A DNA stretch of 23,854 nt from a virus. The DNA lies in IMG/VR virus record IMGVR_UViG_3300033153_002950, positions 1 through 23,854 of that record; one strand, given 5' to 3'. The translations under genes and the position numbers were made by a program. Positions 117 through 23,854 of this stretch are shown in pieces. Each line of letters opens with the position of its first letter. Within the stretch, counting starts at the first letter, position 1. The notes beneath the pieces were generated by a model that was given only the letters and a program-made list of their open reading frames with translations, made no database searches and was not told the origin of the DNA.

Positions 117-359
117 ATGAAATTCAAGCCGGAACTGCTAGCGTTTGTCCGGGAGCTTGCGGCACTGTGCGCAAGGCACCGCATCCACTTGTATCCGCAG
201 TCGAGCGGAATGCTAGGCGTAGGTCCGTCGCGTGATGTCGCGAACGTGACGCCAATGATGCTTGCTCAAGAGGTGCTGGATATGGTCCGCATCCTTGGCA
301 ATGACATTGTAGACCTTGAGCCGGGTGACATCGCAGGACAGTTGGAGTTGGAGGGATGA
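117..359 (+). CDS. Small hypothetical phage protein (80 aa)
   Basis: I do not recognise a family. The ATG at 117 is preferred over the in-frame ATG at 9, because it has GAGGTGG at 108-114 just upstream and because the previous gene occupies the earlier sequence up to 109. The product begins with an amphipathic helical segment (MKFKPELLAFVRELAALCARH) followed by a short Gly/Ser/Pro stretch and a second helix around residues 45-62, with an acidic end. It contains no membrane segment or catalytic motif. Its stop overlaps the next ATG (ATGA at 356-359), so it is probably translationally coupled to the ASCH-like gene. Confidence 0.7.
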   Translation: MKFKPELLAFVRELAALCARHRIHLYPQSSGMLGVGPSRDVANVTPMMLAQEVLDMVRILGNDIVDLEPGDIAGQLELEG

Positions 360-958
360 AAGAACGGCCGATCCTATTCACGGGCGCAATGGTGCGCGCT
401 ATCCTGGCAGGGGGAAAAACCCAGACCAGGCGGGTGGTAGACTCCGGCAGGCTGTGTAAAAAGCAACTTGCCGCCGGGGTAATCACGACAGATAGCGACA
501 TGGAAAACGGATGGCAGCGCCTTGTTCCGTTTTGCCCATACGGCCTGCCGGGTTCGACACTCTGGATCAAGGAAACATGGAAGCCAACAACAGCGCACGT
601 CGGCCCGCCCGAGACTTTCGTCCGCTACAGGGCTGATGATGGTAGGCGGTCAGTGGATCACACAATGGGCGGCAGCCAATCAGACAAGTGGCGGCCGTCA
701 ATCTACATGCCCAGATGGGCCAGCCGGATCACGCTCAAGGTTCTATCCGTCCGGGTTGAGCGGGTGCAAGAGATCAGCCAGGAGGACGCAAGGGCAGAGG
801 GCGTAACACTTCCCCACATCGGGACAGCCAGGGAACTGATGAGCCACCGCCTGGCATTTGAAGCACTCTGGGATTCGATCAACGCCAAGAAGCCGTGCCG
901 GGGGTGGGCGTCGAATCCTTGGGTGTGGGTGGTTGAGTTCAAGGTGGTGAGGTCATGA
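356..958 (+). CDS. Phage ASCH/PUA-like domain protein (200 aa)
   Basis: The product matches a family common in tailed phages and usually annotated as hypothetical or ASCH-domain protein. Seen: N-terminal RPILFTGAMVRAILAGGKTQTRR (split here as an ILFTG start and KTQTRR at about residues 21-26), a PYGLPG..LWIKETW segment at 61-75, the core YMPRWASRITL at 117-127, EDARAEGV at 143-150, and the closing NPWVWVVEFK strand at 187-196. ASCH domains have a PUA-like fold and are thought to bind RNA or modified nucleotides; the substrate of this phage branch is not established. It overlaps both neighbours by ATGA, placing it within one transcript. I am confident of the family type, not of its function. 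Confidence 0.82.
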   Translation: MKERPILFTGAMVRAILAGGKTQTRRVVDSGRLCKKQLAAGVITTDSDMENGWQRLVPFCPYGLPGSTLWIKETWKPTTAHVGPPETFVRYRADDGRRSVDHTMGGSQSDKWRPSIYMPRWASRITLKVLSVRVERVQEISQEDARAEGVTLPHIGTARELMSHRLAFEALWDSINAKKPCRGWASNPWVWVVEFKVVRS

Positions 959-7040: not shown

Positions 7041-7295
7041 ATGACAGACCAGATCGAAACGGTGCGCCCGCGCATTTACAGCCCGACGGGTAAAGACCTG
7101 TTGGCACCCGAACCCGAACCGACACAAGAGCCCGCCCCGGCGTGGGCCTATGACGTGTCACGGGTCAAAGGGCAGAAGATCGCCTTTGGTGGGCACTGGT
7201 TCCGGCTCGACGGGTGGGGGGCGCAAGGGATCTACCTGACATATGTGGAACCCACAAGGGCCACGCTCAAGGCGATCAAGGGTGGGAAGAAATGA
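7041..7295 (+). CDS. Small hypothetical protein (84 aa)
   Basis: The start ATG at 7041 has CAGGTAGGTGTAG upstream. The first 35 residues are Pro/Glu-rich and probably disordered. Residues about 39-84 (YDVSRVKGQKIAFGGHWFRL, then GIYLTYVEPT and a Lys-rich end) look like a small beta domain with exposed aromatics. No family recognised. Its stop overlaps the ATG of the membrane-protein gene (ATGA at 7292-7295), implying coupled expression. Confidence 0.65.
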   Translation: MTDQIETVRPRIYSPTGKDLLAPEPEPTQEPAPAWAYDVSRVKGQKIAFGGHWFRLDGWGAQGIYLTYVEPTRATLKAIKGGKK

Positions 7296-7687
7296 AATTC
7301 TGGACCCTTGAGATCCTTGGATTCATCTGGGCCTTGCCCGTGACTCTGATCGGCCTGGTGTTGGTGCTCATCTCCGGAGGTGGCGAGTTCTGCAGTTACA
7401 GGCCGCGCTACCCTTTGAGGTGGGAGATCCACCCGCGCTGGCCGTGGTGGATGTTTATGGCGGGCGTGGGTATGGGCGCCTTTGTTTTCCTCAAGGGAGA
7501 CATATCGAGCGACCAACTCAGGATCCACGAACTCGAGCACACCCGGCAATGCTTCATTCTTGGCCCGTTTGTCCTGGTCCTATACCCGCTTTTCTCCCTT
7601 GTGTCCCTGGTCTGCTACGGGTCGATCTACAAGCTCAACTGGCTGGAGATCATGGCCCGGGTCAAGGATGGGCGGGCGAAAGTATGA
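7292..7687 (+). CDS. Membrane protein with HExxH metallopeptidase-like motif (131 aa)
   Basis: The ATG at 7292 is chosen for its ATGA overlap with the gene before and GGTGGGAAG upstream. Seen: a hydrophobic N-terminal segment at about residues 5-29, a second at about 51-67, and a third at about 87-112. Between the second and third lies HELEHTRQ at 79-86, a match to the zinc-binding HExxH signature; NWLEIMAR at 116-123 places a Glu (about 119) where some gluzincin-like membrane families have their third ligand. The arrangement of HExxH just before a hydrophobic GPFVLVLYPL stretch resembles small uncharacterised bacterial membrane proteins. Zinc binding and proteolysis are inference. Lysis or envelope remodelling are possible roles, neither shown. 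The stop overlaps the next start (ATGA). Confidence 0.72.
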   Translation: MKFWTLEILGFIWALPVTLIGLVLVLISGGGEFCSYRPRYPLRWEIHPRWPWWMFMAGVGMGAFVFLKGDISSDQLRIHELEHTRQCFILGPFVLVLYPLFSLVSLVCYGSIYKLNWLEIMARVKDGRAKV

Positions 7688-8966: not shown

Positions 8967-9038
8967 TACCCCGCCCGCTCAGGCGAACCCAACACAACCA
9001 AAAACGAACCGGCCGCAATGCGGCTGAAAGGGTTTTCC

Positions 9039-10283
9039 ATGAGCGCAACCGTTACCACCCAGGCCGCAGTCTTGAAAGAACACTACCCGTGGGACGAGGT
9101 AGCCGAGGGCGGCTATCGTCGCAACAAGGCATTCGCCACGGTCAACAAGCGCACCGACGCGGGCGGCGATCAGGAAAAATTCGCCGTTGACTTCGCGCAC
9201 AACCAGGCCGGGTCGTATACGTTCAGCGTGGCGCAAGCCCTGGCCGCCGATCTGAATTCGAACAAGAAAGCGTTCGAAGTCACGACCACCGAAAATTACC
9301 ACATGGCCCACATCTCCGGGAAACTCATCCGGGCCACGGCAGGCAACACGCACGCCTTTTTGCGGGGCGTGGATATGGAAATCAAGGGGGCATTCGGAGG
9401 CATCGAACGCGACATCGAGCGCGATTTCTTCCGCAACGGCAGCGGCAAAATCGGGACATTCGCCAGTGAATCCACCGTCACCATGACCCCGGGCAATGCG
9501 TGGGAAACCCATTGCTTCGAATACGGGATGGAGATCGGTGCCGCGGCCGATGGTGCCAGCGCGATCCGCTCCGGCACCACCACCGTGACGGGCGTCAGTC
9601 GCTCGGCCGGGACCGTGCTGTCGGATGCCACGTGGACAACCGCGATCACCAGCCTGACCGCCGGTGACATGCTGTTCCGCAAGGGTGACTATGACAGCGC
9701 CAACGACCTCAACAAGCTGTATGGCCTCGAAGCGTGGTGCCCCGCAACTGCGCCCACCACGGGCGACAGCCACTTCGGCGTTGACCGCTCGGTGGACGTC
9801 GAACGCCTGGCCGGCGTGCGGTACGATGGCAGTAGCGACACCGTAGAGGAAGCGTTCATCAACGGGCAGAGCGAAGGCTCGGCCAACGGCGCGAACCCCC
9901 GGGTCTGCTGGGCTTCGAACTACAACGTGCGCAGGTTGGTCAACACGATGACGACCAAGGCGCGCTACGGCAAGATGGATGCCCAGGGAGCCAAGGGTTC
10001 CAGCATCGCCGGACACCTCGGTTTCCGGACCATCATCATCGATGGCGACGAAGGCGAAATCAACGTGCTGGCCAACCCGCTCGTACCGTATGATGTCGCG
10101 TGGATGATCGACCCGGACTGCATTTTCTTGCTTTCCATGGGCAAGATGCCGGGCGTCCTGGAAGAAGACGGCGAAACCATGCTGCGGTACTACAACGCGG
10201 ACACGTACGAAATCCGGATCGGGTATTACGCCCAAATGGCGTGCAACGACCCGAGCGGAATCGTCAGAGTCAAACTAGCCTAA
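9039..10283 (+). CDS. Major capsid protein
   Basis: The product (414 aa from ATG 9039) has the size, position and character of an HK97-fold coat protein: an N-terminal arm (MSATVTTQAAVLKEHYPWDEV), an E-loop and peripheral region, a long helix with FLRGVDMEIKGAFGGIERDIERDFF near 104-130, a beta-rich domain, and a C-terminal A-domain-like part with VLANPLVPYDVAWMIDPD and LRYYNADTYEIRIGYYAQM. ATG 9039 has GAAAGGG at 9026-9032 with 6-base spacing. ATG 9018, seven codons upstream, sits inside a small hairpin without a clear ribosome site. The gene is followed by a structured untranslated region, consistent with separate control of the most abundant product. Confidence 0.9.
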   Translation: MSATVTTQAAVLKEHYPWDEVAEGGYRRNKAFATVNKRTDAGGDQEKFAVDFAHNQAGSYTFSVAQALAADLNSNKKAFEVTTTENYHMAHISGKLIRATAGNTHAFLRGVDMEIKGAFGGIERDIERDFFRNGSGKIGTFASESTVTMTPGNAWETHCFEYGMEIGAAADGASAIRSGTTTVTGVSRSAGTVLSDATWTTAITSLTAGDMLFRKGDYDSANDLNKLYGLEAWCPATAPTTGDSHFGVDRSVDVERLAGVRYDGSSDTVEEAFINGQSEGSANGANPRVCWASNYNVRRLVNTMTTKARYGKMDAQGAKGSSIAGHLGFRTIIIDGDEGEINVLANPLVPYDVAWMIDPDCIFLLSMGKMPGVLEEDGETMLRYYNADTYEIRIGYYAQMACNDPSGIVRVKLA

Positions 10284-12499: not shown

Positions 12500-12817
12500 A
12501 TGGCGAAGCCCCCGGCATTCGAACGGCTTGAAACGGGCGACACCGCGGCAACACAGCTGCAAGACTTGCTTACCGATTTCTTTCAGGCCATTGAAGACAA
12601 CCCGCTCCTGTCCGGGCGCATGCTGGACCTGGACGTTACCACGGTCGCAACCGCATTTCCCCACGGGCTGGGACGCACCCCGGAGGGCTGGATCGTTGCG
12701 GACACATACACATCTGGGGGCTTGTTGAGCAATACCATCTGGCGGACCGCCTGGGATGACAAGACGATCACGCTTGACGCTTCGGCGAGCTTCGCCGTCA
12801 AGGTGTGGGTGTTCTGA
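12500..12817 (+). CDS. Small conserved-type phage structural protein (105 aa)
   Basis: GAGGG at 12488-12492 precedes ATG 12500, two bases after the adaptor stop. The product has an N-terminal helical part (LQDLLTDFFQAIEDNPLLSG) and a beta-rich second half with FPHGLGRTPEGWIVADTYT and a final FAVKVWVF. That HGLGR-x-P-x-GW pattern and WVF ending occur in small proteins next to podovirus tail genes, whose role is not defined; they may belong to the tail or a short fibre. Its stop overlaps the nozzle start (TGATG at 12815-12819). Confidence 0.72.
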   Translation: MAKPPAFERLETGDTAATQLQDLLTDFFQAIEDNPLLSGRMLDLDVTTVATAFPHGLGRTPEGWIVADTYTSGGLLSNTIWRTAWDDKTITLDASASFAVKVWVF

Positions 12818-15800
12818 TGCCGTTGCAACGCAAGATAATCAACCTGCCATTCGACGCGGGGATCAACGAAAAGATCGATCATAAGCACCTTCCGGCAGGC
12901 CAGCTGGACACCTGCAGGAACGTGCGTTTCGACAAGATCGGGACCATCACAAAGCGTCCCGGGTTCGATAAAGAGGACATTGCGATCCAGACCGGCGGGG
13001 AAACCCGGATCGTCAACAAGACCGCTTCGCTATTCACCAGGGACTCTGAATTGTACGGGGTGCTTGAGGGATTCAACGATGCCCCCGCGCCAGACGCCCC
13101 GGAGGAGCCGGACGGCTACCACGTCTTTTCGCGCGATGATGCTAGTAGCAAGTGGTGGAAAGCCGGGCGCTGTGAGCCCATGCGGTACGGGGTGCGCAGT
13201 ATCAGCCAGGCCACGGTTGAAACGAAGTCGGCGGACTACGCGGAAAACACCACGCTCGGGATTGGCTGTGCGGCCTGGGTTGAATACGACCACGCATCGA
13301 CCAAGACCCGGATTGCCATTGCCTTGATCGACACTGCCACCGGCTCATTTATCCGTCACACCCGGGGGGAAAGCGCACTGGACGACGCGGTAGCACCCCA
13401 TGTAGTCAAGGTGGGTGCGTACTTCCACGTCTATGCGATCTCACCCACGACAGCCGAAATCGATCTGATCGTGATCAATACGGCAGCCATCCCGGCAGCC
13501 CCGGCCATGCGGACAACGACGGTGACGATCACAAATGTTCACGCTGGCGGGCTTTACGACTGCTGCTACTTCCCAGTCAATGGCACCACGGACCATTCAT
13601 GCTGTCTGTACAAGGAGAGCGTAGCGGGCAAGCTGACCCTGAAATATTACGAGGGGGACGGCACCCTAACCGGCACGGTTGACCTGAACGCGGTTTGCGG
13701 CACCCTGACCCCGAAGTCAGCGGTCACAATCGCCAACACCTACGATCACAACGCAGTAGCCGATCTGCTGACCGTGGCTTATATCGACAACGGGACCGGC
13801 AACACCAAAATCTGTATTCTTGCCGATGACCTGTCGCAGCACACGGCAGACGCCACGTTGACCACTGACACGGCAGCCGATACGATTCACAATATCACGC
13901 TGTGCGTTGACCCAAGCTGGGACCGCAACACGGTTGGGAATTCGGCCGTCCGGGTGTACATGTCAGCAACGCACGGTACGGACGCCTGTTACAACTACGT
14001 GCGCCAAGCGATCTTTATGTTCGCGGGCATTGCGGGCAGGGCGTTCGATGGAACCACGTTCAAGAATTGCGCGCTGGCCAGCAAGGCGTTCCCGTACAAT
14101 CACAGCGATACCGGGGGCTTGAGCCACTACCGGGCGGGCGTGTGGGTCGTGTATGACTCCGACCTGCAGTCAACGCTGTTCCTGGTTGGCAACACGGCCC
14201 CGGCCACTGACTACACTGCACCGGCACTGGACCAGGCCGAACAATTCACAGCTGCCAGGCTGCTTTGTTCGGTGGCCAGCGGTACACCAGCAGATCAACA
14301 CCTGCCGTCTGTCGTGCCATCACCGACCGGCGGGGATCCCGGTTGGCGCTTTGCCACGACCCGCCGGGAACGGTTTGACGCAGATGGGGACGTGATACTT
14401 TCTGCCGTCATTTGTAGCATGACCAAGCGCCTCCGAAACATGGATTCGGCGCAGATGGGACCCACTGCACAGGTGGCCATAGGCCAGCTCTTTGACGTGG
14501 ATGGGCGGGCGTATGAGTCAGGATATCACTACTATCCCGAGCCGCTGCAAGAGACGGACGCCGGGGGTGGTGCGCTGGCAGATGCCGATTATACCTATCG
14601 GGCGATCTATGAGTGGACGGACCGATCCGGCCAGGTGCACCGATCCGCCTACGGGGAAGTAACTTGCACCGTTGCGGGCAAGGCGGGCGCCGGGTCCTGT
14701 GTAATCGGGGGACCGTACCTTGAGCGGGGCGACACCAGCAAGATCCAGGAAGTCCGGATCGCACTGTACAGACTTTGCTCTGATGGCTCCTACCATCGGG
14801 TGGTTGAGGTCACGGGCGGGAAAATCAACGACCTGACGAACCCCCAATGGACCATAACAGACGGCGTGGCAGATGGGACGCTCCTGGATAACGAGATCCT
14901 ATACACGGACGGGAGCGCCCTGGAAAACATCGCGCCGCCGCCTTGCACAATCATTGCTGACCGCAGGGACAGGTTGTTTGTGGTGGATGATGAGGACCGC
15001 ACCAAGATCTGGCCAAGCAAGACAAAGGTCCACGGGGAAGGGTTGGCCTTCTCCGATATCACCCAGTTCTGGGTCAAGACAGGCGGGGATATCGTCGCCC
15101 TGGCTGTCATGGATGAGCGGGTGATAGTGTTCAAGGAACACCAGATCCACGTATTCGCCGGGCCGGGTCCGAATGACTACGGAGTTGGTTCGTTTACCGC
15201 GCCGCGTCCGGTGTCAACGTCCATCGGATGCAAGGATCGGAACTCGATTGCGCAGACAGACAAGGGAATCGTTTTCTGGAGTCATGACGGGTGGTACATG
15301 CTGAATCGTGGCCTCGGCCTGGAGTACATCGGGGCGCCGATCGAGGACCACAAGGCCAACATTCCAAGCTCTGCCGTGGCCGTCCCGTGGGAGCATGAAC
15401 TCCGGATCACCTACGGTTCAACTATCCTGGTTTGGGATTACCTGCTAAACCGCTGGAGTGTTTCGTCCCTTCCATCCACGGTGATCGCGTATTCTTCATG
15501 CCTCTGGGATGAAAAGCACTGCGTTCTGGATTCTCTCGGGAACCTCTGGACCCAGGACAAGACGGCCAGCGGGTTCCGGGACGACACCACCGAAATAGAA
15601 ACCAAGGCGATCACGTCCTGGATCAAACCGGGCGATTTGCTGGCCGGATACCAGCGGATATGGTGGGTACACCTGACCGGCCAGGTATTGGCCGCGCACA
15701 CGCTAAACGTGGATGTTTTCTATGATTATGAGGACACTGTGCCGGGTGAAACCTTCGATTTCGTGATAACCGCCGCCGCTGACCCGATGGAACTGCGGTT

Positions 15801-15954
15801 CAAGCCGGCGCGTCAAAGATGCAAGGCGATCCGGTTCAGCATTTACGATTCGGCACGCAGCACGCCGTTTTCGTCGTTTGACTTGTCGGAGATTGCGCTT
15901 GAAGTTGGCTACAAGCCGGGGCTGGCCAAGATGCGAGCCACCAACACGCTGTGA
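12817..15954 (+). CDS. Tail nozzle / DNA-stabilisation-like protein (1045 aa)
   Basis: The N-terminus INLPFDAGINEKIDHKHLPAGQ (broken here: INLPFDAGINEKID, then HKHLPAGQLDTCRNVRFDK) and IGTITKRPGFD match the start of podovirus tail-tube or packaged-DNA-stabilisation proteins, comparable in role to P22 gp10 or T7 gp12, which plug the portal channel after packaging. The rest is beta-strand-rich and looks like a propeller, with a VVDDEDRTKIWPSKTKVHG region and a C-terminal VWDYLLNRWSV strand pair common to the family. At 1045 residues it is clearly longer than P22 gp10 and T7 gp12, so extra domains are likely. It has more than 20 Cys, unusual for a virion protein. ATG 12817 sits in a TGATG overlap; ATG 12805 is a less likely start. 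Confidence 0.8.
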   Translation: MPLQRKIINLPFDAGINEKIDHKHLPAGQLDTCRNVRFDKIGTITKRPGFDKEDIAIQTGGETRIVNKTASLFTRDSELYGVLEGFNDAPAPDAPEEPDGYHVFSRDDASSKWWKAGRCEPMRYGVRSISQATVETKSADYAENTTLGIGCAAWVEYDHASTKTRIAIALIDTATGSFIRHTRGESALDDAVAPHVVKVGAYFHVYAISPTTAEIDLIVINTAAIPAAPAMRTTTVTITNVHAGGLYDCCYFPVNGTTDHSCCLYKESVAGKLTLKYYEGDGTLTGTVDLNAVCGTLTPKSAVTIANTYDHNAVADLLTVAYIDNGTGNTKICILADDLSQHTADATLTTDTAADTIHNITLCVDPSWDRNTVGNSAVRVYMSATHGTDACYNYVRQAIFMFAGIAGRAFDGTTFKNCALASKAFPYNHSDTGGLSHYRAGVWVVYDSDLQSTLFLVGNTAPATDYTAPALDQAEQFTAARLLCSVASGTPADQHLPSVVPSPTGGDPGWRFATTRRERFDADGDVILSAVICSMTKRLRNMDSAQMGPTAQVAIGQLFDVDGRAYESGYHYYPEPLQETDAGGGALADADYTYRAIYEWTDRSGQVHRSAYGEVTCTVAGKAGAGSCVIGGPYLERGDTSKIQEVRIALYRLCSDGSYHRVVEVTGGKINDLTNPQWTITDGVADGTLLDNEILYTDGSALENIAPPPCTIIADRRDRLFVVDDEDRTKIWPSKTKVHGEGLAFSDITQFWVKTGGDIVALAVMDERVIVFKEHQIHVFAGPGPNDYGVGSFTAPRPVSTSIGCKDRNSIAQTDKGIVFWSHDGWYMLNRGLGLEYIGAPIEDHKANIPSSAVAVPWEHELRITYGSTILVWDYLLNRWSVSSLPSTVIAYSSCLWDEKHCVLDSLGNLWTQDKTASGFRDDTTEIETKAITSWIKPGDLLAGYQRIWWVHLTGQVLAAHTLNVDVFYDYEDTVPGETFDFVITAAADPMELRFKPARQRCKAIRFSIYDSARSTPFSSFDLSEIALEVGYKPGLAKMRATNTL

Positions 15955-16518: not shown

Positions 16519-18216
16519 ATGCCGACTGATGCCGACAGACGGGCCGCAATGGCTGTGCTGGGAATCCCGGAGGATGCCAGCCCGTGGGATATCACGGACG
16601 AACAGAGGCGTGCCATTGCCGGAGAGGCAACGGATCTCCCCCTGCAGATCGACCCGGGCGATCAAGTGGGCCTTGGTCAGATCCCGGCACAGGAGGGGTT
16701 TCAAACAGCCCCGGCCACCTCGATAGACCTGACCACCCAGGCCACTCAACCGGCACAGGCCCAACCCACTGCCCCGGCAGCACCACCAACTGGCCTCGAC
16801 GTGTCACGGGTGGCCGGACAAGACCCGGCAGGGACGATAGGAGCCCCCGGAGCGGGTGGGATGAGGGCTCCACGTCTGCCGGGCGTGGGTGTGTCAACCA
16901 AGCCGCTTAGAGAGGCCCGTGAGCGTGTCCAGGATATTGGAGACGAGGCTTTCAGCGAATACGACAGCCGGGCGAAACTGTACCGCGACGCTGCCGACAA
17001 AGAGCGAGCGGCAACGGCCGCCAAGACCGGGGCGCAATGGGAGAGCGCACAGGTACAAGAAGACATCATGCAATCCGGGGTCGAGAAGGCCGAACGGCTG
17101 CAGGTTGACCACGCGCAACGGGTCAACAAGGCACAGGCGGACGTTGACACCAAAATGGGTCAGTATGAACAGGCCCGGCAGGAGTTCGCGGCCAGCCGGA
17201 TAGACCCGGATGGATTCTACAAAGAGCCGGACGGCTCGACCAATTATGGCAAGAAAATCGGCGCCGCTGTAGCAATCGCACTTGGCAGCATGGCCTCTCG
17301 ACTCCCCGGCCGAATGGGTGGGGGTGGCCCCAATACGGCCTTGAAGATGATTCAGACCGCCATTCAGCGAAACATCAGGGGCCAGGAAGTCAACTTGCAG
17401 AAAAAGGGACAGGCCGTCGGGATGGCACAAACCGAGGTGGGCATGGCCCGCAACCTGTTTTCGGACGCCACGTCCCAAGCCCTGGCCGCTGAGAACGCCC
17501 ACTGGCAGCACGTCCAGCACAAAATCCAGCAAGCCATGATGGGCAGCAAGTCGCAGGAGATCCTTGCGACCGGCCAGCAGTTGCAAGCGGCGATTGTGGA
17601 CAAGGTGAATCAGAATGAGGCTCAACTGAAACAGGGGGAGTTGGCCACCCGGTTGAAAACAGCCTCGACCGAAGCCAGAATTGCGGGCACAGAGATAGGG
17701 CTGAAACAAAAGGGTAGACAGCTGGAACTCCAGCGGGCGGCGGCACAGAGAACCCTTGAAGCCAAGGCGGCACAGGTTCAAAAGCCGGACGTTATGCCCC
17801 CGGGTACGCGGTTGTCTCAGGAGTCGATACGAAAGGGGTTTACCCCAAACAAGAAAGATCGGGGGATTATCAAGGAAGCAATGGCCAGTTACAACCCGGC
17901 AAAAACCGGCATTACGAAGCTGATCGCGTGGCGTGTCAAGTACGGTGCAGAAAAGATGGACAGAACCGCCATGGCGGAGGGTGCCGCGATTGCCAAGGGC
18001 TTGATCCTTGAGTTGAAGGTAATGGAAAAGATGGGCGCCCATTTCACTGAAATGGAAAAAGAATTGCTGGGCATAACCGAAAACCCGGGTGATATCGGAT
18101 TTGTACTGACAACTCTGCGGACGATTGACCAAAGAATCGACGATAAAATCGCGGGCCGTCTGAACGCCTACGGGCTGGACCTGGACAGATCCACGGGGAG
18201 CCGGAAACGTAACTGA
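16519..18216 (+). CDS. Internal virion / DNA-ejection protein (565 aa)
   Basis: The start ATG 16519 follows GGGGTGATAAT. Residues about 1-135 are Pro/Ala/Thr/Gln-rich and likely disordered. About 135-235 are charged helix (ERVQDIGDEAFSEYD, DAADKERAATAAKTG). A conserved-looking core at 245-340 has KKIGAAVAIALGSMASRLPG, then GGGPNTALKMIQTAIQRNIRGQ and further coiled coil, a pattern I associate with internal proteins of short-tailed phages, where a Gly/Ala-rich segment may enter the host membrane. Residues 340-440 are Gln-rich helix and the C-terminus is a compact helical domain. Coupled to the next gene by TGATG at 18214-18218. Confidence 0.75.
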   Translation: MPTDADRRAAMAVLGIPEDASPWDITDEQRRAIAGEATDLPLQIDPGDQVGLGQIPAQEGFQTAPATSIDLTTQATQPAQAQPTAPAAPPTGLDVSRVAGQDPAGTIGAPGAGGMRAPRLPGVGVSTKPLREARERVQDIGDEAFSEYDSRAKLYRDAADKERAATAAKTGAQWESAQVQEDIMQSGVEKAERLQVDHAQRVNKAQADVDTKMGQYEQARQEFAASRIDPDGFYKEPDGSTNYGKKIGAAVAIALGSMASRLPGRMGGGGPNTALKMIQTAIQRNIRGQEVNLQKKGQAVGMAQTEVGMARNLFSDATSQALAAENAHWQHVQHKIQQAMMGSKSQEILATGQQLQAAIVDKVNQNEAQLKQGELATRLKTASTEARIAGTEIGLKQKGRQLELQRAAAQRTLEAKAAQVQKPDVMPPGTRLSQESIRKGFTPNKKDRGIIKEAMASYNPAKTGITKLIAWRVKYGAEKMDRTAMAEGAAIAKGLILELKVMEKMGAHFTEMEKELLGITENPGDIGFVLTTLRTIDQRIDDKIAGRLNAYGLDLDRSTGSRKRN

Positions 18217-21137
18217 TGCCTGTCACCATTTACAGCCGCCAGACCGGCGAAGCGGTCACGCTCCCCGAGGACCAGGCGCAGCAAGCCATCGCTGCCGGTA
18301 CGCATGGCCTTGAGAAGGGCACCCGGGTCAATATCATCGGGGAGGACAACCAGTCTTATTCCGTGGATGCCAACGACCTGCAGGCCGAGCTGACAAAGTA
18401 CGGCGCCCGGCTGGAGTCAAGCGAGGAAACCAGGCACAGGGAAGTCGTGGCCGAATACGGCCAGGGCATTGGTTCAGAGCTTGCGGCCGGGGCGCTTGGC
18501 GCGGCCCGTGGCATATCGCTCGGCCTGTCCGATCCGGCGTTGATCCATTCCGGCCTGATGAAAAAGGAATCCATCGCCGGGTACAAGGAAGCCCTGCCGG
18601 AAACATCCATGGGCGCAGAGCTTGTAGGCGTCGGTGGCTCCCTGCTAATCCCCGGCATGGGTGCCGCCCGGGCGGGCAAGCTAGCACAGGCTGGCCGTGC
18701 CGTGACAGCCCCCGTCCGGGGCGTGGCCAAGCTCGGCCTTGCCGTGGAGAAGGGTGTAGGGGCTGCCACCAAAAAGATGCTTGGCGGGGGTGCGGATCGG
18801 TTCGTCGGGCGCGCCATGACGAAAGCGACCGGACTTGGCGCCGGGTCTGCCGTCGAAGGTGCGCTGTATGGTGGGGGTCAATTCATAAGCGAGGCCAGCC
18901 TGGGAGAGATTGACGCCACGGCAGAAAACTTGCTCGGCCATGTGGGCATGGGTGCTGCCATTGGTGGTGGCTTCGGCGCGGGGCTCGGTGGTGGCTTCGA
19001 ATCCCTGGCAGCCATCGGCCGTGGTGCAAAGCGCATGTCCAAAAGCACAGCGGCCCGCGTGGTTGGCCTGTGGGAAAAGCAGACGGGCAACAAGGCCGTT
19101 CCGGGGTTGGCCGATGCATACGCCAAGACATCCGGGGTGGTATCGGGAGCCGGTGACGAGATAGCGCCCTTTTTCGGCAAGGGTGGGGCGGAGGTTCGAA
19201 GGCGATCAACCATCACAGACGACGCAATCAGCACAAAGGCTGCCAGCCTGTCGGCCGAACGGGACGCACTGGAAACGCTAGAGTCGGGAGTGATTGATTC
19301 AGCGACCGGCAAGATGAAAACCGAGTTTATGCAAGCCGCCGGTAAAGAGGCAAGCCGGGACGTGGTACACGCGGAAGTGTTATCGACACTTGGCGCAGTG
19401 GCGACCCCGGACGGCAAACAGGCGGGGTTACTTGGCGACCTGATGGAAATGTCGTCTAACAAGGCGGCGCCGCTATACGGCAAGGCACAAGGGGCATTGA
19501 TAGACGCCCGCAAGGCTGTCACAACTGCGAACGATGACTTGCTCAAGCTTGCTGCCAGAAAAGACACCGAGGCAATCGGGGAGATGTTTACCCGGGTGGA
19601 TGAGGTCAAGCGGTACATTGGCAGGAAAACAGAACACCTCGGGAATGCATACAAGCGGACCGGGGATCCGCAGATATTGAAGGCAATCGAGCAAATGGAC
19701 GGGCAATATCAAAGCCTTCGAAATCTGCTGGAACAAGACTCCATTTGGGGCAAGACCGCATCGGCGGCACAGAAGGAAGTCAATCAATACTGGGTCCCGG
19801 TCATGCGCCGGGTGGGTCACAAACCCAAGTACCGCCTGGATCGCATCATAGGAAAAGAGGACTTCCACAAGGCCCGGCCCGGCAAGACCACCATGAGACA
19901 GACGGACCCCGGGGAAATGGAAAAGTTCTTGCAGGACCTCGGGACCAACAAGGTCAAGCTCGACCGCGAATGGGTCAGCCAGCAGATGACAGCCAAGGAA
20001 AACCTGTTGGATGCCATCGGCCGTCATTACGATGTTGACCCCGCAAAGATAGCCGACGCCCGGGCGATCCGAAAGTCAATGAAGGCGCAGATTGACGATC
20101 TGGAGAAGTCCATCGGTATGCGCAATCAGTTACGCTCGGTTGAGGCAACCGCCCGGGGCAGTGGTTTGGACGTAGGCACGGCTGCCGCTGCCGGGTACAT
20201 GCTCGGCGGCCCGGTGGGTGCGCTTATCGGTGGTGCTGCCGGCGCGCTTATCAACCCGGCGAAAACCATCAGGCAGCTGGCCACACTGGACCGGGTGTCG
20301 GCAGGATACCGGCTCAAGATCTCCAACGCTGTGCGGGGCTTCACCAGCCAGGCGAAAAAGGGTGCTGCGCCCGTCAAGCGTGCTGGCCGGGTGGGTGCCA
20401 TTGTCGAGCGGCGCAGACAGGCAAAGCGTTTGATTGCCCCGGCTGCAGTGGGCGTGCTGAACCGTGTTTCCTTCGGGGAAAAGCCCCCGAACAAAAAAGA
20501 CAGTCGGGTTGAGGCGTACCAGAAGCGCATGGCTGAACTGTCGGTGCTGGTGAACAACCCGGACGCCGCGTTGGAACGCCTACATAAGGGCACGGAAGTG
20601 GCTCAAGAGGTGGCCCCGAAGGTCACCGACGCGGTACGAAACAAAATCGTCCAGGCCGCAAACTTCCTACTTGAGAAGGCCCCGAAACGCCCCGGGCAAC
20701 CGGGCATGTATTCCGGGGACCGGTGGCGTCCGCCTGAATCCGAGATCGACAAGTGGGAGCGGTACATTCAGGCCGTAGACAACCCGGCCAGCGTACTCGA
20801 TGACCTCAAGAACGGCACGGTCAACCGGGAGAGCGTGGAAGTTCTGCGCGAACTGTACCCCCGGCTGTATGAGCAAGTCACGGCCGAAATCGTTGAGAAC
20901 CTCGCAGACATCTCGGAACTGCCCTACCAGGAACGGATCCGGCTCGACGTGCTATTTCCCGAGGTGCAGATTGACCCAACGATGCGGCCGGAGTTCGTGG
21001 CCAGCATGCAGGCGGCCACAATCAAGGCACAGCCCGGGCAGATGCAAAAACCACAGGCGGGCCGAATGTCAGGGTTGAGCGGGGCGGGAAAACCTGAAAT
21101 GATGACGAAATCACAGCGGCTAGCCGCAAAGGACTGA
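18216..21137 (+). CDS. Large internal virion / DNA-ejection protein (973 aa)
   Basis: The product has a small N-terminal beta domain (about 1-60, with VTLPEDQAQQAIAAG and YSVDANDLQAEL), then Gly/Ala-rich amphipathic or membrane-like segments near 88-109 (ELAAGALGAARGISLGL), 132-153, 238-268 (GMGAAIGGGFGAGLGGGF) and 652-680 (GYMLGGPVGALIGGAAGAL). Long helical stretches separate them. This fits the third and largest protein of an ejection module that forms a trans-envelope conduit in podoviruses such as T7 (gp14-16) or P22 (gp7, gp16, gp20). No lytic transglycosylase motif was visible. The start overlaps the previous stop (TGATG). Confidence 0.75.
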   Translation: MPVTIYSRQTGEAVTLPEDQAQQAIAAGTHGLEKGTRVNIIGEDNQSYSVDANDLQAELTKYGARLESSEETRHREVVAEYGQGIGSELAAGALGAARGISLGLSDPALIHSGLMKKESIAGYKEALPETSMGAELVGVGGSLLIPGMGAARAGKLAQAGRAVTAPVRGVAKLGLAVEKGVGAATKKMLGGGADRFVGRAMTKATGLGAGSAVEGALYGGGQFISEASLGEIDATAENLLGHVGMGAAIGGGFGAGLGGGFESLAAIGRGAKRMSKSTAARVVGLWEKQTGNKAVPGLADAYAKTSGVVSGAGDEIAPFFGKGGAEVRRRSTITDDAISTKAASLSAERDALETLESGVIDSATGKMKTEFMQAAGKEASRDVVHAEVLSTLGAVATPDGKQAGLLGDLMEMSSNKAAPLYGKAQGALIDARKAVTTANDDLLKLAARKDTEAIGEMFTRVDEVKRYIGRKTEHLGNAYKRTGDPQILKAIEQMDGQYQSLRNLLEQDSIWGKTASAAQKEVNQYWVPVMRRVGHKPKYRLDRIIGKEDFHKARPGKTTMRQTDPGEMEKFLQDLGTNKVKLDREWVSQQMTAKENLLDAIGRHYDVDPAKIADARAIRKSMKAQIDDLEKSIGMRNQLRSVEATARGSGLDVGTAAAAGYMLGGPVGALIGGAAGALINPAKTIRQLATLDRVSAGYRLKISNAVRGFTSQAKKGAAPVKRAGRVGAIVERRRQAKRLIAPAAVGVLNRVSFGEKPPNKKDSRVEAYQKRMAELSVLVNNPDAALERLHKGTEVAQEVAPKVTDAVRNKIVQAANFLLEKAPKRPGQPGMYSGDRWRPPESEIDKWERYIQAVDNPASVLDDLKNGTVNRESVEVLRELYPRLYEQVTAEIVENLADISELPYQERIRLDVLFPEVQIDPTMRPEFVASMQAATIKAQPGQMQKPQAGRMSGLSGAGKPEMMTKSQRLAAKD

Positions 21138-21140
21138 GAC

Positions 21141-22391
21141 ATGAAAAAAGCACTTTTGATTTTGCTGGCCGTCTGTTTTCCCATTGCGGCCGTGGCGGGT
21201 GAAACGGTCAAGCTGATCGACCACCAGGACGTGCGAACGGAATACACGCAGCGCGGCATGTCCCCCGGGCGGGCGCATGTGTCAACCCAGATGACCTATG
21301 CGCTCTCCACCGGGGAATCGGTCACCGGCTGGACGGTTTTGGGCAACGATACAATCAATTTTGCCTTGACCGTCAACCATGTGCTGGGCGCGAAAGCACA
21401 CGAATACGACAAGACGGACGGGGCCGCGAACACAAAACACGGGGGCGTGCAATCGACAATTACGGCGGTTGACTTGACCAACTACCTCCAAAACGCTGGT
21501 ACCATTACCTGGACCCAGTACGTCTCGGCCACGACCGACATTGCGGAATGCTGGGTCAGGCTCGGAACGGATGCCAGCAACTACAATGAATGGTCTGTTG
21601 ATGATGACGCCATGGCTGCCGGGTGGAATCACATTTCCGCCAACGTGACTCAACCCTGCCACTACGCCGGGAACGGCTGGGATAGCGCAGTAGTAACATA
21701 TATCGCGGTCGGCTGTGAGTTTGACGCGGAAACAGACGCCCTGGCCGACATGGCTACCGACTGCATTTGTGTGTCGAGCGGGATCAAGACGCTGGCGGAT
21801 CTGTCGGCCTCCATTACCACCTCGGTAAACACGCCCAACATCAACCTGCATAGGCTCGGTGGCCAGCCGGTGAATGAGGGCGTGGGCAACGTCGGGAACG
21901 CCACGCAACGGATTACCATTGCGGACGACGATACTAATTTAGCGGCACAGACCACGGACCTTGCCGCCATCGAAGCCCTGCAGATTCTGATTGAGGCTCT
22001 GCTGACGACCATCGACAGTGATACCAACGACATCAAGACGGCCGTCGAGATAATGGACGACTGGGACGACGGGTCGGATCACGCGGAGGTGGTCACACTG
22101 CCACCGGCACTTGACGCGGACTTGAACACGGCTTGTGTTGCCCTGACGAATGGCGAAGTCGAAACCGTATTGGGCACCGGGTCGGATCACTTCCGGGTGT
22201 GCGCCTACGGAAATTCTGCTTTTATTGAGTGCGGCGCGTCCAGCCCGGCAGGCTTCGATCACACGGTTGGAGAGTTTTCATTCATGGTGGCAGACGGCCA
22301 ATGTCATGACGTGAAAATAACGGATGCCAACTGCTATCACATCGCAGTGGCTACGGCTGGCTGGATCTGCTTCAACAACTTCCTGCAGTAG
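21141..22391 (+). CDS. Signal-peptide-bearing jelly-roll protein, possible fibre or exported host-contact protein (416 aa)
   Basis: AAAGGA at 21128-21133 precedes ATG 21141. The first 20 residues form a classical Sec signal peptide: MKK, a hydrophobic LLILLAVCFPIA core and AVA-G cleavage pattern at about 18-20. The mature part has a jelly-roll-like domain with YTQRGMSPGRAHVSTQMTYA and the WTQYVSATTDIAECWVRLG strands, a linker with IADDDTNLAAQTTDLAAIEAL and MDDWDDGSDH as seen in phage tail proteins, and a C-terminal beta domain with FRVCAYGNSAFIECG. I count 11 Cys after the signal peptide. Fibre-like domains suggest virion attachment, but a signal peptide suggests export; which applies is unresolved. 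Confidence 0.75.
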   Translation: MKKALLILLAVCFPIAAVAGETVKLIDHQDVRTEYTQRGMSPGRAHVSTQMTYALSTGESVTGWTVLGNDTINFALTVNHVLGAKAHEYDKTDGAANTKHGGVQSTITAVDLTNYLQNAGTITWTQYVSATTDIAECWVRLGTDASNYNEWSVDDDAMAAGWNHISANVTQPCHYAGNGWDSAVVTYIAVGCEFDAETDALADMATDCICVSSGIKTLADLSASITTSVNTPNINLHRLGGQPVNEGVGNVGNATQRITIADDDTNLAAQTTDLAAIEALQILIEALLTTIDSDTNDIKTAVEIMDDWDDGSDHAEVVTLPPALDADLNTACVALTNGEVETVLGTGSDHFRVCAYGNSAFIECGASSPAGFDHTVGEFSFMVADGQCHDVKITDANCYHIAVATAGWICFNNFLQ

Positions 22392-22400
22392 GAGCGCACC

Positions 22401-23854
22401 ATGCGACGCCTAGCATGGATACTTATCCCGGCCCTGTGCCTGGCTGTGACGGTCGGGGCGGGTAGCAGCACGCCGCTGATTCGTAGCTTCACCTTCCAGG
22501 ACTCCGGCCACGGGTTCCGCACGCCCACATTTGAAAGCAACTTTGACGAACCATGCACGGGTGGTGACTACGTGTCCGCAAGTGGGCACACCATGACCTG
22601 TAACAACATGGTCGCAGACCCGCGCCTTGCAGACTACGGGCAGACCGAAGGCACGCGGGATGGGTACGCGCACGAATTCGACGGCTCTAATGATTTCCAG
22701 TCTTGCACTGATGGCGGGTGCGGGTTTGACGCTGACCCGGATGGGGACTTCTCTGTGGTGGTTGCGTTCACACCATATTCAGTGGCGGCTGGAACCGGCT
22801 TTCTTGCTGGTAAGTACGAGACTGCTGGCGACGAAAGAAGCTGGGAGTTTGTTAGGTCAACAGATGGCGTGGCCTTTGTCTTGAGCGATGACGGCACATC
22901 GGCCGGAGGGCATTTCAACATCTTGACCAAGGCGGGATCGCTTGCCACTGGTAGGATGTCTGTTGCGGTGATGTCCTTTGACTACATCTCTGATGGCACG
23001 TCCGATGCTGCGGTTTATGTGGATGAACTCGCCAGCGCAACAGATGGCAACTTCAACGGACCTGTTCACGATAGCTCCGGTGACTTCACAATGGGCATCG
23101 ACGCAGACGGCAACAACCCATTTTACGGCCGCATCCACTACGTCGCCTATCATGACGGCATCGCCTTCACAGCCGCCGAAGCAGCCCAAGAGATACGCCA
23201 CCAGCGCGGACTCCTTACAGCAGACGGGCTCAACCACGTCACGGTCACATCGGCATCTCCACCCATGGCCCTTGTTGCCGCTGCAGACTCCGGCGTGGAA
23301 CCGTTCTTGGTGCCACAACCCGCCAACACCGCAACTATAGGCCCAGCGGGGCTTTACGGGGCGAGCGGGACCACAAACAGATGCGAAAGATCAACGCTCG
23401 AAACCTGGGGTGGCGGGGCACCAACTGGGTGGGTGGAGCAACACACGGCGGGCAACGGCACTGCGGACATCGCGCAAGATACTGCATCCATGGCCGAGGG
23501 GCTGTCCAGTGGACAACTGCAAGTCACAAACACAACGTCAACCGCTGCGATCTACGCACAGGGATGCAATACGTGTACAGACCTTTGCGGGAACGACCCG
23601 TGCAACTGTGATGCGTATTTGTCAGCATGGGCAAAGAACGACGGCGTAGGGGAGTTGAGCCTAAAACTGATACAATACGACACAGCCGCATGCGGGACCG
23701 GGACGGGCACATTGACGCCAGTTTCGGCAAGTGACCCGGGTAGTACGTGGGAGCTTGTATCAGGTCCCATTGCTGCTGCAGCATGGCACGCTAACACGTC
23801 GTCGATGCTCATCAGGATAGAGGAAACCGGCGACGGTGGGGTCAATACCAATTT
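22401..23854 (+). CDS. Signal-peptide-bearing LamG-like / carbohydrate-binding-like protein (3' truncated by window end)
   Basis: An uninterrupted frame of 484 codons starts at ATG 22401, with AGTAGGAGCG just upstream, and runs to the window edge with no stop. The first 20 residues are a signal peptide (RR, hydrophobic LAWILIPALCLAVTVG, then AGS). Residues about 90-275 read as a concanavalin A-like/LamG-type domain: YAHEFDGSNDFQSC, FSVVVAFTP, a DAAVYVDELASATDG strand, and FYGRIHYVAYHDGIAFTAAEA near the end. After a linker, ETWGGGAPTGWVE to SMLIRIEETGDG resembles a CBM4/9-type jelly roll. I count 11 Cys after the signal, five in GCNTCTDLCGNDPCNCD. Likely glycan-binding; whether virion-borne or secreted is open. 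Confidence 0.75.
   Translation, partial: MRRLAWILIPALCLAVTVGAGSSTPLIRSFTFQDSGHGFRTPTFESNFDEPCTGGDYVSASGHTMTCNNMVADPRLADYGQTEGTRDGYAHEFDGSNDFQSCTDGGCGFDADPDGDFSVVVAFTPYSVAAGTGFLAGKYETAGDERSWEFVRSTDGVAFVLSDDGTSAGGHFNILTKAGSLATGRMSVAVMSFDYISDGTSDAAVYVDELASATDGNFNGPVHDSSGDFTMGIDADGNNPFYGRIHYVAYHDGIAFTAAEAAQEIRHQRGLLTADGLNHVTVTSASPPMALVAAADSGVEPFLVPQPANTATIGPAGLYGASGTTNRCERSTLETWGGGAPTGWVEQHTAGNGTADIAQDTASMAEGLSSGQLQVTNTTSTAAIYAQGCNTCTDLCGNDPCNCDAYLSAWAKNDGVGELSLKLIQYDTAACGTGTGTLTPVSASDPGSTWELVSGPIAAAAWHANTSSMLIRIEETGDGGVNTN

What the first reader, a model, noticed from the sequence alone, without database searches (positions are those of the whole stretch)
21141..23854. Two consecutive fibre-like proteins with Sec signal peptides
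Both last genes start with a clear signal peptide followed by phage-fibre-like jelly-roll domains and 11 cysteines each. Virion fibres assemble in the cytoplasm, where export would remove them. The pair may instead be secreted or surface-displayed by the infected cell, for example to mask receptors, retain progeny or bind released glycans, or may attach to virions outside the cytoplasm.
Basis: partly seen in the sequence, partly recalled or inferred. Interest (0 to 1): 0.58.

Follow-up and report, generated by a model that had tools for sequence, protein, structure and literature searches.

The report
Exported fibre-like phage protein pair
An uncultured bacterial virus carries, among its structural genes, two sugar-binding fibre-like proteins that bear an address label for export out of the cytoplasm, and related viruses carry whole sets of such genes, which suggests that some viruses make parts meant to work outside the place where their particles are built.

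Summary
ORF1 (21141-22391) and ORF2 (22401 to the contig end, incomplete) both begin with textbook Sec type-I signal peptides, follow good ribosome-binding sites, and have 11 cysteines each outside the signal. They sit 3 and 9 nt behind the preceding gene of a podovirus-like structural module. ORF1 holds a CBM/turret-like beta-sandwich; ORF2 holds a LamG domain.

It is not a one-off. ORF1-ORF2 recur as a pair, signals kept, in an unrelated phage (L017, 39% and 34% identity). Cassettes of two or more signal-bearing fibre-family genes occur in eight uncultured tailed-phage contigs, within or beside head, tail or packaging genes. With one strict rule, 23 of 39 cassette ORFs score as signal-bearing against 0 of 102 other ORFs in the same loci. 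Signal-less relatives exist; in L048 a signal-less and a signal-bearing copy (47% identical over 900 aa) lie 5 kb apart.

Export is therefore very likely. What the proteins do outside is not shown. I favour glycan-binding fibres that fold in the periplasm and reach virions at lysis; secreted, non-virion glycan-binding factors are nearly as likely. My literature searches found no description of such cassettes. The host is unknown and no isolate matched.

The parts
21141..22391 (+). ORF1, 416 aa, exported fibre-family protein: signal peptide, CBM-like beta-sandwich, phage-fibre linker motif, Cys-rich C-terminal domain
21141..21197 (+). ORF1 signal peptide (residues 1-19, AVA|G site)
   Evidence: score 5.64
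21321..21791 (+). ORF1 beta-sandwich domain (about residues 61-217)
   Evidence: blast relatives; VIA-align Z 8.1 to the HFTV1 turret head, Z 7.9 to CBM15
21837..22067 (+). ORF1 linker (residues 233-309) shared with signal-less phage proteins L006-L008
22095..22388 (+). ORF1 C-terminal domain (residues 319-416), six Cys all conserved in L017
22401..23852 (+). ORF2, at least 484 aa (runs off the record), exported LamG protein
22401..22460 (+). ORF2 signal peptide (residues 1-20)
   Evidence: score 4.91
22740..23180 (+). ORF2 LamG (Laminin_G_3) domain
   Evidence: 24.9 bits; 27.1 bits; cut-off 27.6
18216..21137 (+). upstream 973-aa protein, internal-virion-like by position and composition; ends 3 nt before ORF1
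   Evidence: no confident family; role is inference
9018..10283 (+). major head protein of the same module
   Evidence: phrog_14242, E 1.2e-11
12805..15954 (+). virion structural protein of the same module (1049 aa, 22 Cys, no signal)
   Evidence: phrog_3287, E 4.7e-9

Best explanation
ORF1 and ORF2 are phage fibre-family, glycan-binding proteins that have acquired Sec signal peptides and are the visible part of an exported fibre cassette shared by diverse uncultured tailed phages. Shown by sequence: signal peptides, domain families, conservation of the pair, operon-like packing behind structural genes, existence of signal-less homologues. Inferred: glycan binding, late expression, export by Sec and cleavage by signal peptidase, folding in the periplasm with disulphides, storage there until lysis. 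My committed mechanism for the last step, unproven, is that lysis mixes the stored proteins with new virions, onto which they dock from outside as head or tail fibres, adding glycan-binding surfaces that the cytoplasm could not make well.
For: Signal peptides in ORF1, ORF2 and cassette genes of seven further contigs. The pair kept in L017 at 39% (391 aa) and 34% (486 aa) identity, on a backbone with another MCP family (phrog_1328 against phrog_14242). In 5 of 7 pairs compared the signal is less identical than the mature part while its character is kept; in the other two (W2/L017 and W1/L003) it is the more identical part. Virion-type relatives: signal-bearing L002_11317, L034_6488, L047_1871 and L048_14456 match phrog_5939 'tail protein' (E 1.1e-26, 4.4e-12, 1.6e-43, 2.3e-27). 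Position within or beside the structural module: 3 nt behind the 973-aa gene in the window; major head protein, one or two genes, cassette in L017, L034, L045; shortly upstream of the sheath gene in L047; upstream of the large terminase in L003. Same-phage control: L048_6847 (no signal) and L048_14456 (signal) 47% identical over 900 aa. The first structural neighbour of the ORF1 domain is the capsid turret head of HFTV1 (Z 8.1, tied with CBMs at 7.9), which its authors propose binds host glycans (PMC12494034, passages). Decoration proteins can bind capsids from solution: Dec binds P22 in vitro (PMC7602432, passages).
Against: No virion proteomics; no isolate matched. Export puts the proteins across a membrane from the assembling particle, and dilution at lysis would work against docking. 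The N-terminal segment seen in signal-less relatives such as L012 and L024 (that it anchors fibres to virions is recalled) is absent from ORF1. The HFTV1 match is at the level the tool calls possibly just a common arrangement, and the model has mean pLDDT 36.7. Cys content is not a reliable export mark here. Glycan binding itself is inferred from fold likeness only.
Confidence: 0.42

Rival explanations
1. The proteins are exported and never join virions. They act in the periplasm, on the cell surface or in the surroundings as lectins or matrix-active factors, for example binding released glycans or debris that would trap progeny, masking receptors, or helping to loosen extracellular polymer.
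For: Signal peptides; LamG/CBM-like domains; the L047 cassette holds a trypsin-like protein with a hydrophobic N-terminus (Pfam Trypsin_2, 2.3e-12); L017 ends its cassette with a Cys-rich, lipoprotein-like gene; ORF1 lacks the N-terminus of signal-less fibres.
Against: Up to five genes inside or beside virion modules and homology to tail proteins fit virion parts better than a single decoy; signal-less and signal-bearing copies coexist in L048.
Confidence: 0.37
2. The hydrophobic N-termini are not export signals in practice: the proteins stay in the cytoplasm and the segment serves as an assembly or docking element on the virion.
For: The domains are those of phage fibre-type proteins without signals: 11 contigs carry the ORF1 domain without one.
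Against: Typical n-, h- and c-regions with small residues at -3/-1 in many different cassette genes; letters diverge while character is kept; the two L048 copies, with and without the segment, share the remaining chain.
Confidence: 0.1
3. The two genes are cargo of host origin (surface proteins) that happen to sit in the phage contig.
For: LamG and CBM-like folds are common in bacterial surface proteins (general knowledge).
Against: Signal-bearing relatives were found in phage contigs only; the only two hits in the species-genome scan are signal-less (the scan works by short patterns and is not exhaustive); gaps of 3 and 9 nt to the structural module.
Confidence: 0.04

Closest known systems
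Haloferax tailed virus 1 turret head protein gp31 (PDB 8QPG)
   Same: Galactose-binding-like beta-sandwich proposed to bind host glycans from the virion surface; first VIA-align row for the ORF1 domain, Z 8.1, 117 residues, rmsd 3.2
   Different: No sequence match; its second domain is deacetylase-like; the paper's main text holds no occurrence of 'signal peptide'; archaeal virus
Phage capsid decoration proteins and head fibres (T4 Hoc, T5 pb10, phi29 gp8.5, L Dec)
   Same: Surface proteins that bind carbohydrates or cells, and some bind capsids in vitro (PMC7602432, passages)
   Different: The word 'periplasm' does not occur in that review; recalled as made in the cytoplasm without signal peptides
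phrog_5939 phage tail proteins
   Same: Signal-bearing L002, L034, L047, L048 proteins match it, and ORF2 is similar to parts of the L047 and L048 proteins
   Different: ORF2 itself does not match phrog_5939; family annotation only, function not tested
Known exported phage proteins: Lom, SAR endolysins, spanins
   Same: Phage-encoded and exported or membrane-inserted (Lom: PMC12309495 passage; SAR endolysin: PMC3765740 passage; spanins: PMC3556154 passages)
   Different: Unrelated to fibres; lysis or outer-membrane roles

Membership tests
Sec type-I signal peptide proteins | positive n-region, uncharged h-region, small residues at -3/-1 | tested here: met
   ORF1 5.64, ORF2 4.91; control set
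Sec type-I signal peptide proteins | actual export and cleavage | not testable with these tools
   needs a fusion assay or N-terminal sequencing
Bacterial lipoproteins | lipobox with Cys at +1 | tested here: not met
   no lipobox found in ORF1 or ORF2
LamG (Laminin_G_3, PF13385) | score over the curated cut-off 27.6 | tested here: inconclusive
   ORF2 24.9 and 27.1 bits; relatives in L002, L003, L034, L048 exceed it
Phage fibre-type proteins | sequence homology to fibre-type proteins encoded in virion modules | tested here: met
   ORF1 domain in 11 signal-less contigs; linker shared with L006-L008
Phage fibre-type proteins | presence in the virion | not testable with these tools
   no isolate, no proteomics
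HFTV1-type turret head | same fold of the N-terminal domain | tested here: inconclusive
   Z 8.1 from a low-confidence model, tied with CBMs
HFTV1-type turret head | sequence similarity to the solved chain | tested here: inconclusive
   no PDB sequence match at E<=1; absence does not exclude distant kinship

The most novel reading that the evidence does not exclude
Some tailed phages finish their virions outside the cytoplasm: they export a cassette of glycan-binding fibres, some disulphide-bearing, through Sec, keep them in the periplasm, and load them onto virions when the cell lyses. The cassette moves between unrelated phages, and signal-less copies in the same genome can supply cytoplasmic versions.
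Probability: 0.3. Interest if true: 0.87.

Novelty: new variant of a known kind. Interest (0 to 1): 0.62.

Why it matters
Tailed phages are thought to complete their particles in the cytoplasm. A recurrent, multi-gene set of fibre-family proteins with export signals, lying among structural genes, either means that part of the virion is added from outside, or that phages secrete fibre-derived glycan binders as a separate weapon. Either would be surprising, both change how fibre-like genes in metagenomes should be annotated, and they can be told apart by one proteomics experiment once a host is found.

Tried and rejected
Isolate phages: tblastn of ORF1, ORF2, the window's portal, L017 ORF1- and ORF2-like, L003_11420, L048_14456, L048_4100 and L034_4977 against 50,697 phage records gave only two records (Manatee Spring, matching part of L017's protein; one read).

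Host: unknown. Profile A8 in 392 genomes of the phylum of the Planctomycetota MAG (L025) gave 0 matches at 1e-12, and in 369 genomes of the class of the Gammaproteobacterial MAG (L024) gave 3 genomes with partial matches (query residues about 262-526), which I did not read further. The tool warns that an empty answer shows nothing.

Structures: AlphaFold models of ORF1 and ORF2 are poor (mean pLDDT 36.7 and 32.9). ORF2's model was not searched. Foldseek against viral models gave mixed rows of low TM-score, including unrelated polyproteins; I draw nothing from it.

Cysteine as export mark: the ORF1-family test (4 signal-bearing against 12 signal-less, p 0.0045; it includes L027, which barely aligns, and ignores relatedness) and cassette against rest (median 1.79% against 1.18%, p 0.02) point one way; the counterexamples keep it weak. 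In ORF2 only two Cys are invariant with L017.

Direct search with ORF2 alone found nothing in viral contigs; its relatives came through L017 and the cassettes.

Literature: nine searches and passages of nine papers; none described exported fibre cassettes. The library holds open-licence papers only, and I read no paper whole.

Rejected: lipoprotein (no lipobox); wrong start codon (ribosome-binding sites in place and no earlier in-frame start).

Full report
What the window is. The window is a whole IMG/VR virus record of 23,854 bases classed as linear. It reads as a short-tailed-phage structural module in one direction. By family match: major head protein 9018 (phrog_14242, 1.2e-11) and virion structural protein 12805 (phrog_3287, 4.7e-9). 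By position and my reading of the sequence, not by a search: small terminase 2958, large terminase 3371, portal 4908, scaffold 8073, internal-virion-like proteins 15963, 16519 and 18216. ORF1 begins 3 nt after the 973-aa gene and ORF2 9 nt after ORF1. In T7-like phages the tail fibre gene lies in this place (recalled), and I see no other clear fibre candidate, although the record ends inside ORF2.

The observation. Both proteins start with a short positive n-region, an uncharged hydrophobic core and a small-residue cleavage site. SignalP is not on hand, so I wrote a rule and tried it on 52 genes of an E. coli K-12 stretch: 11 of 13 genes that I know as exported were called, 1 of 10 inner-membrane and 3 of 29 others, the false calls scoring 4.29 or less. 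ORF1 scores 5.64 and ORF2 4.91. Each has 11 Cys after residue 25.

Relatives of ORF1. Pattern scans of IMG/VR and one of species genomes gave 14 further contigs with the ORF1 beta-sandwich that I treat as distinct (L011 and L012 hold the same gene; L006-L008 share only the linker, and L027 barely aligns; none of these is counted apart). With the window that makes 15. Four have a signal (window, L002, L003, L017); 11 do not (L004, L005, L012, L013, L014, L015, L016, L018, L019, L024, L025). So the domain is a phage fibre-type domain that usually comes without a signal, and the exported form is the exception.

The pair is conserved. L017, a 40-kb phage with a different major head protein (phrog_1328), carries ORF1- and ORF2-like genes side by side, both with signals: 39% over 391 aa and 34% over 486 aa. 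L017's ORF1 has two copies of the domain and the same C-terminal domain with all six cysteines conserved.

Cassettes. Around these genes lie more signal-bearing genes. L002 and L003 each hold a run: ORF1-like, pectate-lyase-like (my reading; no Pfam match), a 236-243-aa Cys-containing protein, then one or two large LamG proteins. Further scans with the cassette genes brought L034, L045, L047 and L048. The contigs have GC from about 44% to 62% where computed and different head or tail families. Within the cassette intervals 23 of 39 ORFs score 4.5 or more; outside, in the same loci, 0 of 102; in 14 loci of signal-less relatives 3 of 209, which look like lipoproteins or membrane proteins. One more, in L045, scores 4.61 from a start deeper in its frame, and several with hydrophobic N-termini miss the rule (L002_13827, L003_11420, L034_4977, L047_7783). 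Of the 16 cassette ORFs below 4.5, some plainly have no signal, above all five small and large ones in L048 and one each in L017 and L047. Caveat: I drew the intervals, and the threshold of 4.5 was set after seeing the control, so the Fisher value printed should not be used as a probability. The eight contigs are also not independent samples.

Where the cassettes sit. In L017 the order is major head protein, one gene, cassette, connector-like genes, tail-tube-like gene, tape-measure-like gene (head protein by phrog, the rest by reading). In L034 and L045 it follows the major head protein (phrog_138) by one or two genes. In L047 it comes shortly before the tail sheath (phrog_2839); L048 has a similar layout, but its candidate sheath matched only a family of unknown function. 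In L003 it precedes the large terminase (phrog_38). Signal-less relatives such as L004 (by reading) and the phage have their related gene a few genes after the head protein too.

A built-in control. In L048 a signal-less 884-aa gene (6847) and a signal-bearing 894-aa gene (14456) are 47% identical over 900 alignment positions, residue 2 of one meeting residue 19 of the other. Both match phrog_5939 'tail protein'. The signal is thus an added segment on an otherwise shared chain.

Fold. The ORF1 model is poor overall, usable only around residues 97-213. VIA-align places that part with CBM-like jelly rolls; the first row is the HFTV1 turret head (Z 8.1, 117 aligned, rmsd 3.2), tied with CBM15 and others at 7.8-7.9. 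No PDB chain matches by sequence. From the HFTV1 paper I saw passages only: the turret head carries a galactose-binding-like domain at residues 57-198, proposed to bind host glycans; the companion paper's passages report head-first binding to cells. I use this as a fold likeness, not as kinship.

Cysteines. In the beta-sandwich a Cys pair (alignment columns 125 and 186) is present in three signal-bearing copies (window, L002, L003), absent from both L017 copies, and never complete in a signal-less copy; L012 has one of the two. This looks like a disulphide that comes and goes as a unit, on few sequences. Against a general rule: the signal-less 12805 protein has 22 Cys, and L048_14456 has almost none.

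Mechanism. Shown: signal-like N-termini that are kept, fibre-family domains, conservation as a pair and as cassettes, placement within or beside structural genes. Inferred: late expression, export, oxidative folding, glycan binding, release at lysis. For what follows I commit to docking on virions at lysis, at modest confidence. For: virion-type families, position, the signal-less twin, and the fact that decoration proteins can bind finished capsids in vitro (PMC7602432, passages). Against: nothing yet places the proteins in a virion, and ORF1 lacks the N-terminus of signal-less fibres. The secreted, non-virion reading is close behind.

Novelty. Phage-encoded exported proteins are known (Lom, SAR endolysins, spanins) and so are carbohydrate-binding virion proteins. 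Sets of exported fibre-family genes among structural genes did not turn up in nine searches of open-licence papers. I file it as a new variant of a known kind, because the domains are known and the new feature is where they are sent.

Noticed in passing
L047:7783-8373: Trypsin-like peptidase (Pfam Trypsin_2 2.3e-12, Trypsin 3.4e-8) with a hydrophobic N-terminus, last gene of an exported cassette in a phage; possibly processes the exported fibres.
   Followed up: partly
window 12805-15954: Signal-less virion structural protein with 22 cysteines in 1049 aa, unusual for a cytoplasmic virion part.
   Followed up: no
window about 7289-7687 (frame 7214-7687, +): Small hydrophobic protein with an HELEHTRQ (HExxH-type) motif between portal and scaffold; looks like a membrane metallopeptidase (motif recalled).
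   Followed up: no
L048:6847-9501 and L048:14456-17140: Signal-less and signal-bearing paralogues of a phage tail protein, 47% identical over 900 aa, about 5 kb apart in one contig.
   Followed up: yes
L017:11021-11578 and L017:11575-11850: Two very Cys-rich small exported or lipoprotein-like genes (7.5% and 10.6% Cys after residue 25) closing the cassette.
   Followed up: no
window 356-958: 200-aa protein of a kind also found in L002 (5755-6348, 28% identity); the L017 record has a similar-looking gene; reads like an ASCH-type protein (recalled).
   Followed up: no
L002:10589-11320, L003:10710-11420, L034:5738-6478, L048:13743-14459: Family of 236-246-aa proteins with hydrophobic N-termini and, in three of four, several cysteines, seen only in these cassettes; the three tested have no Pfam match.
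   Followed up: partly
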